This document shows, piece by piece, positions 1-5,822 of a DNA stretch of 5,928 bases. The notes under the pieces were generated by a model, which worked only from the letters and a program-made list of their open reading frames with translations, did not search any database and had not been told where the DNA came from. The first letter of the stretch is position 1, and every line of letters starts with the position of its first letter. The position numbers were made by a program, and so were the translations under genes. This DNA is from Pseudomonadota bacterium. Lineage in GTDB: Bacteria > Pseudomonadota > Alphaproteobacteria > Rhizobiales > Xanthobacteraceae. The DNA lies in NCBI GenBank assembly GCA_021779635.1, contig JAJYAH010000468.1, positions 1 through 5,928 on the forward strand, given 5' to 3'.

Positions 1-1077
1 GGTCGCCCGAATGTCGCGCAAAAACAGCAGCACCACGATGACGGCGAGAATGGCGCCTTCGAACAGCGTTGAGATCGCTGCCTCGTAGTTGCCTTTGGTA
101 AACTCCACCGAGGTGTCGATCAGCTTGAGATCGACATCGGGATAGGCAATTTTCAGCGCGTCGATCCGCTTCTGAACGGCGGCTGCGACCACCACGTCGC
201 TGGCGCCCTTCGACCGCTTGATGCCGAGCGCCACCACCGGCTCGCCGTTGAAGCGGGCAAATGTCCGGCGGTCGGCGATGGTGTCGGTGACGGTGCCGAG
301 ATCGTCCAGACGTACTTCGCCGCCTCCGAACAACGGAATCATGGTTCCGGCGAGTTCGTTGAGCGTCTTGGCGCCGGCCAGCGTCCGGATCGCCTGGTCG
401 TTCTTGCCGATCTCCGCCCGGCCGCCGGCAAGGTCGACATTGGTGCCGCGCAGGCTTTGGCTGACATTGACGGCGGTCAGGCCGGCCGCCTGCAGCCGGT
501 CCGGATCGAGCGAGACTAGAATCTCGCGCTCGACACCGCCGATGCGCTCGACCTGGGCGACGTTACGCACGCCCTGCAGCGCGCGTTTGACGACGTCGTC
601 GACGAAATAGGACAATTGCTCCGGCGTCTTGCCCGGCGATATCGCGGCATAAGTGACGATCGGCAGGCCGATGACGTCGACGCGCTGGATCAGAGGCTCG
701 TTGACGTTTTGCGGCAGGTTGCTGCGGACGCGGGTGACGGCGTCCTTGACGTCGTTCAGCGCCCGGTCGGTGTTGGTCTCAAGGGCGAACTGGATCGTCG
801 TCAGCGACAGCCCGTCGGTGATCGACGATGAAATGTGCCGCACGCCCTCGACGCCCGATACGCCGTCTTCGATGGTCTTGGTGACCTGGGATTCCAGTTC
901 GGCCGGCGCGGCGCCGAATTGCGATACCGCGACCGAGATCACCGGGATGTCGGCGCTGGGCAGGCGCGTCACGGCGAGCTTGGTGAAACTCAGCCAGCCC
1001 AGCACCAGCAGGATGATCGAAAACACGACGGAAGGCAGCGGGTTGCGGATCGACCATGCCGAGATATTTAAAGCCAT
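1..1077 (-). CDS. RND efflux pump inner-membrane permease, N-terminal part (AcrB/HAE1-like)
   Basis: This is a proton-driven RND exporter subunit of the inner membrane; only the first 359 residues are visible and the gene continues past the left edge. RND permeases are usually about 1,000-1,050 residues. A cytoplasmic N-terminus and TM1 (about residues 13-32, SVVFSIILLVLG) are followed by the first periplasmic porter/docking region. It includes RLPSADIPVISV, a stretch typical of the first porter subdomain, and FALETNTDRALNDVKDAV. The visible part ends in TM2 (about 338-353) followed by FLRDIRAT, equivalent to FLQNFRAT of AcrB. The proton-relay residues lie outside the window, so activity cannot be judged. 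The ATG at 1077 shares its A with the adaptor's TGA stop (TGATG), so translation is probably coupled to that gene. The substrate is unknown; HAE1-type (hydrophobic compounds) fits better than a heavy-metal CzcA type, but that is inference. Confidence 0.95.
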   Translation of the reverse strand, partial: MALNISAWSIRNPLPSVVFSIILLVLGWLSFTKLAVTRLPSADIPVISVAVSQFGAAPAELESQVTKTIEDGVSGVEGVRHISSSITDGLSLTTIQFALETNTDRALNDVKDAVTRVRSNLPQNVNEPLIQRVDVIGLPIVTYAAISPGKTPEQLSYFVDDVVKRALQGVRNVAQVERIGGVEREILVSLDPDRLQAAGLTAVNVSQSLRGTNVDLAGGRAEIGKNDQAIRTLAGAKTLNELAGTMIPLFGGGEVRLDDLGTVTDTIADRRTFARFNGEPVVALGIKRSKGASDVVVAAAVQKRIDALKIAYPDVDLKLIDTSVEFTKGNYEAAISTLFEGAILAVIVVLLFLRDIRAT

Positions 1078-2006
1078 CAGCGTACCCGCGTTCGATCGAG
1101 GTCCTCGGCGAACATGGTCTTGATCTGGTCGCCGTCATGCAACGAGCTGCCGGCGTCGGCCACGACGATTTCGCCGACATCGAGGCCCTGAAGGATTTCC
1201 GTGCTCGTATCGGACACCAGTCCGACCCGAACCTTCCGCGTCTCAACCGTATTTCCTTTGACCACCTGGACGGTGAGGTGGTCAATGGCAGTACGGGGGA
1301 TCGCGACCCCGCAGCTGCGTCTGGCATCAATGTTGGCGCGGGCGAACATACCGACCTTGAGCGAGGGGTTCTTGGGGAGCGATATCCGGACGTGGCCAAG
1401 CTGGCTGGTACGATCGATTTGCGGCGAAACCAGCCTGACGTGCCCCACGAGGTCCGGCGCATCGTCGCGGCTTACCCGCACCGTCACTCCCGGACTGAGC
1501 TTCAACATGTGGACGGCCGGCACTTCGGCGTCGAGTTCAATTTCGTCGTTGACGGAAATTCGAAACATCGGTCCGGCCTGCGGCGAGGCCGGCGCTCCGA
1601 CGATGGTGCGGACCTGGGTAACCAATCCGGCGGCCGGAGCGCGCAACGAGGTCGGTGCCGGTTTCGCGCCGCCGGCGGGACTTCCGGGTTGCGTCGGCGG
1701 TGGCGTCAGCCGCGCCAATTCCTGATTATCGCTGACCATGTCGCCTTCATGGACCAGAAGTTCCGAAACCTTGGACCCTTCCTGGTCGACGCCGACAACC
1801 GCTTCCCTGCGGGGCACGAAAAATCCAGTGACCCGCACGGTGTCGGAGAAGCAGGCATTGGTGGATTTTGTCACGATGACGAGGGCGTCGCCCGGCGTTT
1901 CCTTTTCCTCGGCGTGCGGCCGGTGCTCGATCCAGTAATACCCTCCCGCCAAAGCCGCGACACCGACCACTGCCAACGCAGGCTTGAGATATTCGGAGAG
2001 CATCAT
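1077..2006 (-). CDS. Short RND periplasmic adaptor (membrane fusion protein, HlyD/AcrA family)
   Basis: This adaptor would link the RND permease encoded directly downstream to an outer-membrane channel, which is not encoded in the window. Its 309 residues are short for the family, usually about 350-420. An N-terminal membrane anchor (about residues 8-26, no lipobox cysteine) leads to the first lipoyl half-motif (about 58-100, with VSELLVHEGDMVSDNQELARL). The second lipoyl half follows (about 120-150, SLRAPAAGLVTQV), then a beta-barrel (about 151-227, with LKVGMFARANI) and a membrane-proximal domain (about 228-298, with VAIPRTAI). Between the two lipoyl halves, where AcrA has a long coiled-coil hairpin, there is only a Pro/Gly linker of about 19 residues (101-119). 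The start is one of two adjacent ATGs (2006 or 2003); neither has a clear Shine-Dalgarno sequence. An inverted repeat upstream at 2059..2082 suggests repressor control. The family call is firm; the substrate is unknown. Confidence 0.93.
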   Translation of the reverse strand: MMLSEYLKPALAVVGVAALAGGYYWIEHRPHAEEKETPGDALVIVTKSTNACFSDTVRVTGFFVPRREAVVGVDQEGSKVSELLVHEGDMVSDNQELARLTPPPTQPGSPAGGAKPAPTSLRAPAAGLVTQVRTIVGAPASPQAGPMFRISVNDEIELDAEVPAVHMLKLSPGVTVRVSRDDAPDLVGHVRLVSPQIDRTSQLGHVRISLPKNPSLKVGMFARANIDARRSCGVAIPRTAIDHLTVQVVKGNTVETRKVRVGLVSDTSTEILQGLDVGEIVVADAGSSLHDGDQIKTMFAEDLDRTRVR

Positions 2007-2250: not shown

Positions 2251-2910
2251 TTACTGGGACGCGGTCGTTTTGTTCGCCATGTTGACGACCTGCACGCGGC
2301 GGTTCACGTCCGCCGTCGGGTGGCTCGGGTCCTTGAGCTTCGTCTTGCCGTAGCCGACGGTCACAAGGTCGGACCCGGCAATGCCGAACTTATCGGTCAG
2401 ATAGCGCTTGATCGAATCTGCACGCCGCTCGGACAGGTCCTGATTGTAAGCGTCGCTGCCGACCGCGTCGGTATGGCCTGCGACGATGAAGGTCGAACCT
2501 TTCAGATCCGGATTGGTCAGTGCCCGCCCCAGCGTCTGAACCGAGGACAGCGATCTTCTGCTGATATCGGCCGAATTGTAATCGAAGTTGATTTCGAGAT
2601 CGATGTTCGGCTTGTCCTTGGCGATGGTGGCGATTTCTTCGCGCTCGGCGGCCGACAGCGAGCGCGTAGCCCGGTTACGGATGGTCTGAACGAAACGTCC
2701 CTCGGCGGCGACCGCTTCGGGGTCAGCCTTGGGGCCCACCGACAGGCCTCTGGTCAAATGGGGCTTGGCCGGGGTCAGCGCCTGGAGGATTTGTCCCTCC
2801 GTGACGTCGTCAGCGGCGGCGGCTGTTCCGATGCCGACGGAAAACGCGGCACCAATCGTCACGATCGAAAGGATCGCGGCAAGATTTCTCCTTCCACTTA
2901 TTTTCGACAT
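2251..2910 (-). CDS. Secreted OmpA-family peptidoglycan-binding protein
   Basis: This 219-residue envelope protein has a Sec signal peptide (about residues 1-33, ending TAAAA before DD) and a short helical region (about 34-100). The C-terminal OmpA-like domain (about 104-211) includes INFDYNSADI, VAGHTDAVGSDAYNQDLSER and NRRVQVV. D148 and R163, 15 residues apart, fit the pair that binds the diaminopimelate of peptidoglycan in OmpA domains. There is no N-terminal beta-barrel and no lipobox, so it is probably a soluble periplasmic, wall-bound protein. The open frame extends upstream to an ATG at 3048, but the added 46 residues are not signal-like. The ATG at 2910 has an excellent AGGAGGG (2924..2918) seven bases upstream, which decides the start. 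It lies 150 bp downstream of the caspase-like gene on the same strand, probably as a co-transcribed partner. The family is firm; the role is inferred. Confidence 0.93.
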   Translation of the reverse strand: MSKISGRRNLAAILSIVTIGAAFSVGIGTAAAADDVTEGQILQALTPAKPHLTRGLSVGPKADPEAVAAEGRFVQTIRNRATRSLSAAEREEIATIAKDKPNIDLEINFDYNSADISRRSLSSVQTLGRALTNPDLKGSTFIVAGHTDAVGSDAYNQDLSERRADSIKRYLTDKFGIAGSDLVTVGYGKTKLKDPSHPTADVNRRVQVVNMANKTTASQ

Positions 2911-2917
2911 CGCCAGT

Positions 2918-3060: not shown

Positions 3061-4551
3061 TCAATCTACCCCGTAACTTGCGAATTCCTTGACAATATTC
3101 GGGTCCATGGCTTTGGCATTGGAAACGTCCAGTTCGCCCTCTGAAATCGAACCATTGCGCTGCTTGGCGAGCCCGCGCCCGTACAGCGACGACGTCAGTC
3201 TTGGATTGATCTTGAGCGCGGCGTCAAAATCGGCGATCGCGTTCTTGGCCATGCCGCTCTTCAAATTGAGCAGGCCGCGGCTGTCGAGGGCATCGACAAA
3301 GTTTGGGCGCAACCGGAGCGCTTCGTTGCAATCCTTCAATGCAGCCTGCAGGTCGCCGATGACGGTACGCGCCCAGCAGCGGTTGTTGAAGGCTTCCACA
3401 TCCTTGGAGTTCAGCCGCAGCGTGTCGCTGAAATCATTGATGGCAAGGTTGTACGCTCCCTTGCTGGCGAAGACCTGTCCGCGCCGATAGTACGTGTTGG
3501 GGTCGTTGGGATTTTTGGCAATCTTGTCGGTCAGGTCTTTGATGATCGGGTCTTCGCTGAGCGATGGGGCGTCTTTCTTTTCCAGCGGCTCGTCCTTCTT
3601 TTCAACCTGCTTGTCGGCGGGCGGAGTCGGGGGTTCGGACGGCTTTGTCGGCGGCGGTTCGTAGTGCGGCGTCGGTGCCGTTTCGTAGTGCGGTGTCGGC
3701 GCGGGTTCGTGGTGCGGAGTCGGCACGGGTTCGGGAATTGGCTGGGGAGGGTTCATCGCCTGCGGGCCGGGCGGTTGCGGTGGCGCGCCCGAACCCGGGA
3801 TAAATGAAAAGTCCTCCGCCAGGGAGGACGAAATCCAGGGCACCTGCTCGCTGCGGGATGCGCGGGTGACGCCGACGCGGGTCCGATTGAGCGTTTCTTC
3901 GGCCATCAGGTCGGGGACACGAATTTCCTTCAGCAATTCCTGCACGAACAGGCTGTGGTCGCTGCCATTGTCGCTGATGACGGAGCTGAGCGCCGCCGAA
4001 TACATCACCAGCGTTCCGTTTGGCGCGATCACCGGCGCCAGGCCCGCGGAGAAGCTGCGGAACCGGCGTTCGAACGGATTGCGCCGGCTGGCGTCGATCA
4101 GGGCGATCTTGACGCCTGCCCCGCGATTGTTGATTTCACCCAGCACCGTCTCCAGGCTGAAGCCATCGCGACGAACATCCGGTTCGGTCCAGATCTGTGC
4201 ATCGACCGGGATCATATAGCTCTGGCGCGCCGACTGGACGCCAAACCCGCTGAAGAAAATCAGCACGATCGAACCGGGCTTGATGCGCGCGTAAAGGTGG
4301 TCGAAGGCGCGCCGCATCGCGTCGCCCGTCAGATTTTCTCCGACCTCGACGCTAAAGCCGTCGCGCTTGAGTTCGTCGGCGACGTCGCGGGCGTCGTTGA
4401 TGGGCTCCTTGAGAGGCGCCTCGGCGTCGGGGTATTTCGCGTTGCCGATGACCAGCGCAAACCGGTCCGCGTGACTGTCGGCGGCGACCGACGGAACGAT
4501 CGATACCACTGATAAAATCAGGATCACAAGCAATGCGAGGCGGATTTTCAT
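3061..4551 (-). CDS. Secreted caspase-fold (peptidase C14) protein with Pro-rich linker and TPRs; predicted pseudocaspase
   Basis: The 496-residue product begins with a Sec signal peptide (about 1-24, ending SVAA before DSHADR). A caspase/metacaspase p20-like domain follows (about 29-250), with RFALVIGNAKY, EPINDARDVADELKRDGF, SYMIPVDA and NPF all matching bacterial family members. The usual SGHG and DAC motifs read SGFG and DAS instead. Phe103 and Ser155 replace the catalytic His and Cys, and no cysteine occurs before residue 391, so protease activity is not expected. A Pro-rich linker (about 254-312) contains three PTPH repeats, followed by a charged Lys/Glu/Asp stretch. Four TPRs (about 352-487) end the protein; its only cysteines, C391 and C408, lie in TPR2. 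It is probably a periplasmic binding or scaffold protein acting with the downstream OmpA-type product. A promoter candidate lies at 4623..4653. The ribosome site is weak, but the signal peptide supports the ATG at 4551. Confidence 0.94.
   Translation of the reverse strand: MKIRLALLVILILSVVSIVPSVAADSHADRFALVIGNAKYPDAEAPLKEPINDARDVADELKRDGFSVEVGENLTGDAMRRAFDHLYARIKPGSIVLIFFSGFGVQSARQSYMIPVDAQIWTEPDVRRDGFSLETVLGEINNRGAGVKIALIDASRRNPFERRFRSFSAGLAPVIAPNGTLVMYSAALSSVISDNGSDHSLFVQELLKEIRVPDLMAEETLNRTRVGVTRASRSEQVPWISSSLAEDFSFIPGSGAPPQPPGPQAMNPPQPIPEPVPTPHHEPAPTPHYETAPTPHYEPPPTKPSEPPTPPADKQVEKKDEPLEKKDAPSLSEDPIIKDLTDKIAKNPNDPNTYYRRGQVFASKGAYNLAINDFSDTLRLNSKDVEAFNNRCWARTVIGDLQAALKDCNEALRLRPNFVDALDSRGLLNLKSGMAKNAIADFDAALKINPRLTSSLYGRGLAKQRNGSISEGELDVSNAKAMDPNIVKEFASYGVD
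3658..3729 (-). repeat. Three tandem 24-bp repeats coding the PTPH linker
   Basis: Copies at 3658..3681, 3682..3705 and 3706..3729 each start TTCGT on the plus strand and differ at only a few positions. They encode the eight-residue units EPVPTPHH, EPAPTPHY and ETAPTPHY in the linker between the caspase-like domain and the TPRs; a degenerate EPPPTKPS unit follows. Copy number may vary between strains through slippage. Confidence 0.85.
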
Positions 4552-5015: not shown

Positions 5016-5822
5016 ATGGCAAACACCTACCAAATCTACGCCCTCCGCTATGCGACGATGTCGCCCCGTACGCCGCACCTGAATTTTCTGATTCCGGATC
5101 CGCATGAGACGACCGCGCAGGATCTCGACTATTTCGTCTGGCTGATCCGGGGCGGCGGCCGCGACATCCTGGTCGATACCGGGTTCAACGCCGAAGAGGC
5201 GGGTCTGCGAAATCGCAAGCTCACGCTCGATCCGGTCGATGCGCTCGAGCGCTTTGGCGTAAGGGCCGACAGCATCAGGGACATTGTCGTCACCCATCTG
5301 CATTACGATCACGCCGGTAATCTCGACCGTTTCCCCCAGGGGCGGTTCCATCTGCAGGATCGCGAGATGAGCTACGCCACCGGGCGTTGCATGTGCAACG
5401 GCATGCTCCGGCATCCGTTTTCGATCGAGCATGTCACGCTGATGGTGCGTCACGTCTACGGCGAGCGCGTCAGCTTTCATTCCGGCGATGGCGAGGTTGC
5501 CCCGGGCGTGACCGTGCATCGGGTCGGCGGCCATTCCGACGGCCTGCAGGTGGTGCGGGTGGAGACCGAGCGTGGCCCCGTGGTGCTGGCCTCGGACGCC
5601 GCGCATTACTACGCCAATCTGCAGCGCCGCAGCCCGTTTCCGATCGTCTACAATGTCGGCGACATGGCGCAGGGCTGGGAAATCGTCGAGCGGCTCGCCG
5701 GCCATCCTGATCGCTTCATTCCCGGCCATGATCCGATCGTGAGCGAGATCTATCCCCGTGCCAGCGACAAGGTCGATGCATTTGCGTTGCACCTGAAACC
5801 GTCGCGCTCCTTTGTCAGATAG
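5016..5822 (+). CDS. Metallo-beta-lactamase-fold hydrolase, N-acyl homoserine lactonase-like
   Basis: The 268-residue product resembles the AiiA/AttM group of dinuclear-zinc lactonases. The metal motif HLHYDH (residues 94-99; ligands H94, H96, D98, H99) lies in VVTHLHYDHAGN. It is followed by H173 (GGHSDG), the bridging D194 (SDAAHYY) and H238 (IPGHD), so the full ligand set is present. ILVDTGF (51-57) is the usual strand before the metal site. No signal peptide is seen, so it is probably cytoplasmic. The frame is open from an ATG at 4899, but MANTYQIYALRYATM at 5016 begins where the family begins, with purine-rich AGAAAAGTGGAA just upstream. The next gene, a hydroxyacid dehydrogenase, lies 18 bp downstream in an apparent operon, which favours a catabolic lactone substrate over pure quorum quenching. 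Acyl-homoserine lactones remain possible, because substrate cannot be read from the sequence. Confidence 0.92.
   Translation: MANTYQIYALRYATMSPRTPHLNFLIPDPHETTAQDLDYFVWLIRGGGRDILVDTGFNAEEAGLRNRKLTLDPVDALERFGVRADSIRDIVVTHLHYDHAGNLDRFPQGRFHLQDREMSYATGRCMCNGMLRHPFSIEHVTLMVRHVYGERVSFHSGDGEVAPGVTVHRVGGHSDGLQVVRVETERGPVVLASDAAHYYANLQRRSPFPIVYNVGDMAQGWEIVERLAGHPDRFIPGHDPIVSEIYPRASDKVDAFALHLKPSRSFVR

What the first reader, a model, noticed from the sequence alone, without database searches (positions are those of the whole stretch)
4087..4245. Caspase domain with both catalytic residues replaced
The caspase-fold framework is intact (LVIGN, NDA, PVDA, NPF), but the catalytic His position reads Phe103 (TTT, 4245..4243) and the Cys position reads Ser155 (AGC, 4089..4087). 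No cysteine exists anywhere in the domain, so a shifted nucleophile is unlikely. The reading frame is clean over 496 codons, so this is not a decaying gene. Prokaryotic pseudo-caspases with substituted dyads, often Tyr-Ser, are known; a Phe-Ser version that is exported and joined to TPRs would be a distinct non-proteolytic, probably ligand-binding form.
Basis: partly seen in the sequence, partly recalled or inferred. Interest (0 to 1): 0.75.

Follow-up and report, generated by a model that had tools for sequence, protein, structure and literature searches.

The report
Dead bacterial caspase with TPR tail
A soil-bacterium protein keeps the shape of a caspase but has lost both catalytic residues; this type was already described in 2019, though related bacteria sometimes fuse it to a working caspase domain, which hints that it partners or controls a live protease.

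Summary
In detail: ORF 3061-4551(-) encodes a Bradyrhizobium-type caspase domain (residues 30-248) behind a signal-like N terminus, followed by TPRs, with Phe103 and Ser155 in place of His and Cys and no Cys in the domain. The class is not new: Klemencic et al. 2019 (PMC6426788) list Phe-Ser among the commonest dyads of Rhizobiales pseudo-orthocaspases and report that it consistently comes with C-terminal TPRs. Nor is Phe-Ser a distinct form: in 89 pseudo-clade genes Ser is fixed, while the His column is Phe in 59 and Tyr in 30, needing 12 changes on the tree. The gene is under purifying selection (median dN/dS 0.10), has a strong match in 93 of 98 Bradyrhizobium genomes and stands near an OmpA-family gene in 75 of 80 loci. 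Only 9 of 45 host genomes hold reaction-centre genes, against the published photosynthesis idea for this clade. By-product: 13 of 336 retrieved proteins join exactly one His-Cys domain to one or two dead domains, the live halves coming from several lineages. This suggests a partner or regulator of live orthocaspases. Function is untested.

The parts
3061..4551 (-). pseudo-orthocaspase-TPR gene, 496 aa
4480..4551 (-). signal-peptide-like N terminus, about residues 1-24
   Evidence: read from the sequence; inference, no prediction program run
3808..4464 (-). caspase domain, residues 30-248 (Peptidase_C14)
4243..4245 (-). codon 103 TTT, Phe at the catalytic His column
4087..4089 (-). codon 155 AGC, Ser at the catalytic Cys column
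4393..4395 (-). Asp53, acidic specificity-pocket column, kept in 84 of 84 pseudo rows and 47 of 47 His-Cys rows
   Evidence: aligned to Asp of MALT1; pocket role recalled and from PMC6426788 section 17
4093..4095 (-). Asp153, second acidic pocket column, kept in 84 of 84 and 47 of 47 rows
4225..4227 (-). Arg109, pseudo-clade signature (84 of 84; Gly in 45 of 47 His-Cys rows)
4081..4083 (-). Arg157, two residues after Ser155, pseudo-clade signature (84 of 84; Asn or Asp in 47 of 47 His-Cys rows)
   Evidence: not kept in all tandem proteins
3562..3786 (-). low-confidence Pro-rich linker, about residues 256-330
   Evidence: low pLDDT
3076..3549 (-). TPR array, about residues 335-492
2251..2913 (-). 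OmpA-family gene just downstream, same strand, 220 aa
   Evidence: PF00691 E 2e-21; homologue found in 75 of 80 loci

Best explanation
The protein is an exported pseudo-orthocaspase. Its caspase fold no longer cuts peptides; it is kept as a binding module. My preferred mechanism is that the dead domain pairs with, or occupies the partner or substrate site of, one of the live His-Cys orthocaspases of the same cell, as cFLIP does with caspase-8, while the TPRs bind a further protein, possibly near the OmpA-family neighbour at the cell wall. Shown: loss of both catalytic residues, strong conservation, synteny, fold, coexistence with live paralogues, and fused dead-plus-live relatives. Inferred: lack of proteolysis, periplasmic location, pairing with a live caspase, and the tie to the OmpA protein.
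For: Dyad lost in all 89 pseudo-clade genes compared, never His or Cys. Median dN/dS 0.10 for the window against 88 relatives, so not a relic. No His is among the columns conserved in 97% or more of the 84 pseudo rows, so a Ser-His catalytic pair is unlikely. Ser155 is coded by both TCN (84) and AGC (4) among 88 relatives, as expected if Ser itself is selected. Five genomes examined hold 6 to 21 PF00656 matches each; of 30 fetched, 19 are His-Cys. Of 336 retrieved proteins 15 have two or three caspase domains: 11 with one live and one dead domain, 2 with one live and two dead, 2 dead-dead, none live-live. The live halves of nine fusions do not form one clade (p-AU 4.75e-61), so pairing arose more than once or the live partner was swapped. 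Fold match to MALT1 over residues 26-255. OmpA-family gene nearby in 75 of 80 loci.
Against: Fusions are rare: none among 173 caspase ORFs of the fetched loci, and no single match of the fusion P0123 spans both halves in the listed part of 98 genus genomes. The fusions were found with queries that contain a dead domain, so the missing live-live class may be ascertainment. The dead halves of the nine fusions may be one clade (p-AU 0.126). The model of fusion P0123 gives no confident domain arrangement (pTM 0.47). The genomes were not shown to keep one particular live caspase next to this gene. Klemencic et al. thought regulation of true orthocaspases unlikely (Discussion).
Confidence: 0.4

Rival explanations
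1. Stand-alone binding module: the intact acidic pocket binds Arg/Lys peptide ends or another basic ligand without cutting, and the TPRs pass the signal on or scaffold an envelope complex; no live caspase is involved.
For: Asp53 and Asp153 kept in 84 of 84 pseudo rows. Klemencic et al. found the acidic pocket kept in cyanobacterial pseudo-variants. Envelope-type neighbours in most loci. The TPR form itself has no fused live domain.
Against: Says nothing about the dead-live fusions.
Confidence: 0.35
2. Ser-based enzyme: Ser155 acts as nucleophile with another base.
For: Ser155 invariant in 84 of 84 pseudo rows and in both Ser codon families.
Against: Phe, which cannot act as base, is interchangeable with Tyr at column 103; no His column conserved at 97% or more; one relative has Gly (P0093) and one Ala (P0124) in place of Ser.
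Confidence: 0.06
3. A role in photosynthesis, as proposed for pseudo-orthocaspases in general by Klemencic et al. 2019.
For: Published argument from distribution (abstract and Discussion). Rhodopseudomonas hosts are phototrophs (4 of the 9 positives).
Against: 36 of 45 searched genomes that carry this gene have no Photo_RC match.
Confidence: 0.04
4. Decaying relic without function.
For: Both catalytic residues lost.
Against: dN/dS about 0.1, strong match in 93 of 98 genus genomes, clade-specific invariant residues.
Confidence: 0.02

Closest known systems
Rhizobiales Phe-Ser pseudo-orthocaspases with TPRs (Klemencic et al. 2019, PMC6426788)
   Same: Same dyad, same order (Rhizobiales), same C-terminal TPR architecture (text and Figure 4 legend).
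   Different: The paper ties each dyad to an architecture and says Tyr-Ser forms mostly lack identifiable C-terminal domains; here Phe and Tyr alternate at one syntenic TPR gene.
SyOC, pseudo-orthocaspase of Synechocystis PCC 6803 (PMC7889975)
   Same: Caspase homologue with the dyad replaced; deletion raised tolerance to H2O2 (abstract and Discussion).
   Different: Tyr-Gly dyad per PMC6426788 Table 1, cyanobacterial, and not compared by sequence here.
MALT1 paracaspase
   Different: MALT1 is an active His-Cys protease of animals; no Ig domains were found here.
Caspase-16 of mammals (PMC12198278, abstract only)
   Same: A dead N-terminal and a live C-terminal caspase domain in one chain, the layout of 10 of the 15 tandem relatives.
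   Different: Animal protein from exon duplication; the window protein itself has no live domain.
cFLIP long form with caspase-8
   Same: Dead caspase domain that pairs with a live one; described in PMC6426788 Discussion.
   Different: Resemblance in idea only; no pairing was tested here.

Membership tests
Peptidase family C14 fold (PF00656) | significant match over the curated cut-off | tested here: met
   123.7 bits against 21.4; MALT1 fold match
Active orthocaspase | His-Cys catalytic dyad | tested here: not met
   Phe103 and Ser155
Pseudo-orthocaspase (Klemencic et al. 2019) | p20 domain with one or both dyad residues replaced | tested here: met
Pseudo-orthocaspase (Klemencic et al. 2019) | no separate p10 domain | not tested
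   The paper's p10 profile was not available; the fold match spans the whole MALT1 caspase domain, so p10-like structure may be present.
Phe-Ser TPR class of Rhizobiales | Phe-Ser dyad with C-terminal TPRs | tested here: met
Paracaspase | Ig-like domains beside the caspase domain | tested here: not met
   only C14 and TPR families matched in Pfam
PADLOC defence caspase (PDLC02987) | membership of an anti-phage system | tested here: inconclusive
   weak match, 27.2 bits, E 5.4e-7; neighbours are envelope-type genes
Proteolytically inactive protein | no peptide cleavage in an assay | not testable with these tools
   needs purified protein

The most novel reading that the evidence does not exclude
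Bacteria of the Bradyrhizobium group run an exported two-member caspase system in which a dead caspase domain controls or completes a live one, as caspase-16 and cFLIP/caspase-8 do in animals. The usual arrangement is two genes; several lineages have fused the pair into one chain. The TPR protein of this window would be the free dead partner, tied by its TPRs to the cell envelope.
Probability: 0.3. Interest if true: 0.75.

Novelty: new member of a known kind. Interest (0 to 1): 0.35.

Why it matters
As a finding it is mostly a confirmation: a published class of pseudo-orthocaspase, with the added facts that Phe and Tyr are interchangeable, Ser is fixed, and the photosynthesis link fails for this clade. 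The dead-plus-live tandem relatives give a concrete, testable lead for what these widespread proteins do: bind a live orthocaspase and set its activity in the bacterial envelope.

Tried and rejected
Sequencing error or strain-specific loss: rejected, since relatives share the state. Shifted Cys nucleophile: rejected, no Cys in the domain. Serine catalysis: disfavoured (no conserved His). Photosynthesis role: disfavoured. Intramolecular dead-live dimer geometry in fusion P0123: the model gave pTM 0.47, so nothing can be said. Whether Arg109/Arg157 plug the acidic pocket: not testable, as the tool gives no coordinates. Alignment A2 was dropped because the single pseudo domains seem to have been laid on the live half (low identities); A3 was used instead. 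The RND query was in a wrong frame; it was redone (72 of 80 loci). Literature: searches found no paper on fused dead-live bacterial caspases; these searches cover only the open-licence library and the terms used. The dyad tree was a quick one; one search repeated it on 89 rows with bootstraps under a simpler model and again gave 12 changes.

Full report

Where it comes from. The nearest named loci are Bradyrhizobium and relatives; no whole genome is held for the window. The gene has a strong match (E at most 1.5e-110) in 93 of 98 genomes of the genus. In a sample of 150 genomes of the order, 4 have a match with E at most 1.2e-232; the best in genomes other than these is 8.4e-42. So the TPR form looks confined to the Bradyrhizobium, Rhodopseudomonas and Tardiphaga group named.

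Is it a distinct Phe-Ser form? No. In 80 loci the matched gene is Phe-Ser in 54 and Tyr-Ser in 26. In the careful tree of 89 pseudo-clade genes (59 Phe-Ser, 30 Tyr-Ser, dyad columns masked) the label needs 12 changes, 9 forced by supported branches, 11-12 in bootstrap trees. The quick tree of 140 rows with 47 His-Cys and 3 Tyr-Ala domains puts the Phe-Ser and Tyr-Ser rows in one clade (SH-aLRT 100; 90 rows, one of them, L104, the same gene as L012). The swap is one base: TTC 43, TTT 15, TAC 22, TAT 8 among 88 relatives; Ser is TCN in 84 and AGC in 4. A further 30 loci drawn by a fusion query were all Phe-Ser. 24 of 27 Tyr-Ser ORFs in the 80 loci also carry the TPR part; of the other three, one is a single-domain paralogue, one (L067) lies at a contig end and one (L064) is a short frame.

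What is conserved. In 84 pseudo rows (five single-domain paralogue rows counted apart) Asp53 and Asp153 are kept in 84 of 84, as in 47 of 47 His-Cys rows. Clade-specific residues are Arg109 (84 of 84; Gly in 45 of 47 live rows), Ser111 (82 of 84; Asn in 47 of 47), Arg157 (84 of 84; Asn or Asp in 47 of 47), Trp121 and Glu161-Arg162-Arg163-Phe164 (each 84 of 84). No His is among the columns conserved at 97% or more (all). In the tandem proteins Arg157 is not always kept. Median dN/dS of the window against 88 relatives is 0.10.

Surroundings. An OmpA-family gene lies 147 bases downstream in the window (PF00691) and a homologue was found in 75 of 80 loci; a HlyD-family gene in 74, an RND transporter in 72 and a divergent metallo-hydrolase in 68. 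Misses include loci that end near the gene. Asplund-Samuelsson et al. 2012 already noted OmpA domains in 14 metacaspase operons (PMC3501461, passages only).

Live caspases in the same cells. Five genomes hold 14, 21, 6, 8 and 9 PF00656 matches (some are fragments). Of the 30 fetched, 19 are His-Cys, 3 Tyr-Ala, 4 are the TPR gene and 4 a single-domain pseudo paralogue.

Dead-live tandems. Among 336 proteins retrieved by three capped searches 321 have one caspase domain, all Phe-Ser, and 15 have more: ten dead-then-live, one live-then-dead (P0126), two live-dead-dead (P0125, P0237), two dead-dead (P0002, P0003); none live-live. Dead here means that the Cys is missing; in P0128 and in the last domain of P0237 the His is kept. 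The dead halves of P0128 and P0238 have the residue signature of live domains, so they seem to be separate losses (nearest rows). Two of the tandems bear Bradyrhizobium isolate names (P0123, P0127). The live halves of nine fusions cannot be held together in one clade (p-AU 4.75e-61); the dead halves can (p-AU 0.126). The mammalian caspase-16 has the same dead-then-live layout (PMC12198278, abstract). Limits: all queries held a dead domain, so live-live tandems may have been missed; 0 of 173 caspase ORFs in the fetched loci are tandem; the model of P0123 leaves the domain arrangement open (pTM 0.47).

What was known. Klemencic et al. 2019 describe 582 alphaproteobacterial pseudo-orthocaspases, 561 of them from Rhizobiales, name Tyr-Ser, Tyr-Ala and Phe-Ser as the commonest dyads there, and say Phe-Ser proteins consistently have C-terminal TPRs (I read the abstract, Results parts 1 and 2 of 3, section 17 and the Discussion). 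The same paper links pseudo-orthocaspases to photosynthesis and holds that within Alphaproteobacteria only photosynthetic organisms carry them; 36 of 45 searched genomes with this gene have no reaction-centre match, which speaks against that for this clade. It also judges regulation of true orthocaspases unlikely, against my preferred mechanism. A pseudo-orthocaspase of Synechocystis affects H2O2 tolerance (PMC7889975, abstract and Discussion).

Judgement. Ordinary as a discovery, since it is a member of a published class. The interchange of Phe and Tyr corrects the idea of a separate Phe-Ser form. The dead-live tandems make a partner or regulator role the best single guess (0.4), with a stand-alone binding scaffold close behind (0.35).

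Noticed in passing
P0004, P0093, P0121-P0124, P0126-P0129, P0238, P0125, P0237: Proteins that join one intact His-Cys caspase domain to one or two dead ones; live halves of several lineages.
   Followed up: yes
P0002, P0003: Two Phe-Ser domains in tandem in one chain, without TPRs.
   Followed up: partly
L102, L103, L109; L057 about 660-1740: A single-domain pseudo-caspase paralogue (Tyr-Ser or Phe-Ser) lies about 5 to 20 kb from the TPR gene in the genomes where both places were read; similar spacing (up to about 26 kb) for further matches whose dyads were not read.
   Followed up: partly
L099, L100, L108: A separate Tyr-Ala pseudo-caspase family in the same genomes.
   Followed up: no
window 5016-5822 (+): Divergent metallo-beta-lactamase-fold hydrolase; below-cut-off likeness to quorum-quenching lactonases; homologue in 68 of 80 loci.
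   Followed up: no
window 1-2006 (-): HlyD-family and RND transporter genes with overlapping stop and start near 1077; conserved with the locus.
   Followed up: partly
window about 3625-3711 (-): Imperfect PTPHYE-type repeats in the Pro-rich linker between caspase domain and TPRs.
   Followed up: no
L064: Tyr-Ser relative whose open frame is only 396 aa although the tblastn match spans query residues 1-495, possibly a frame break.
   Followed up: no
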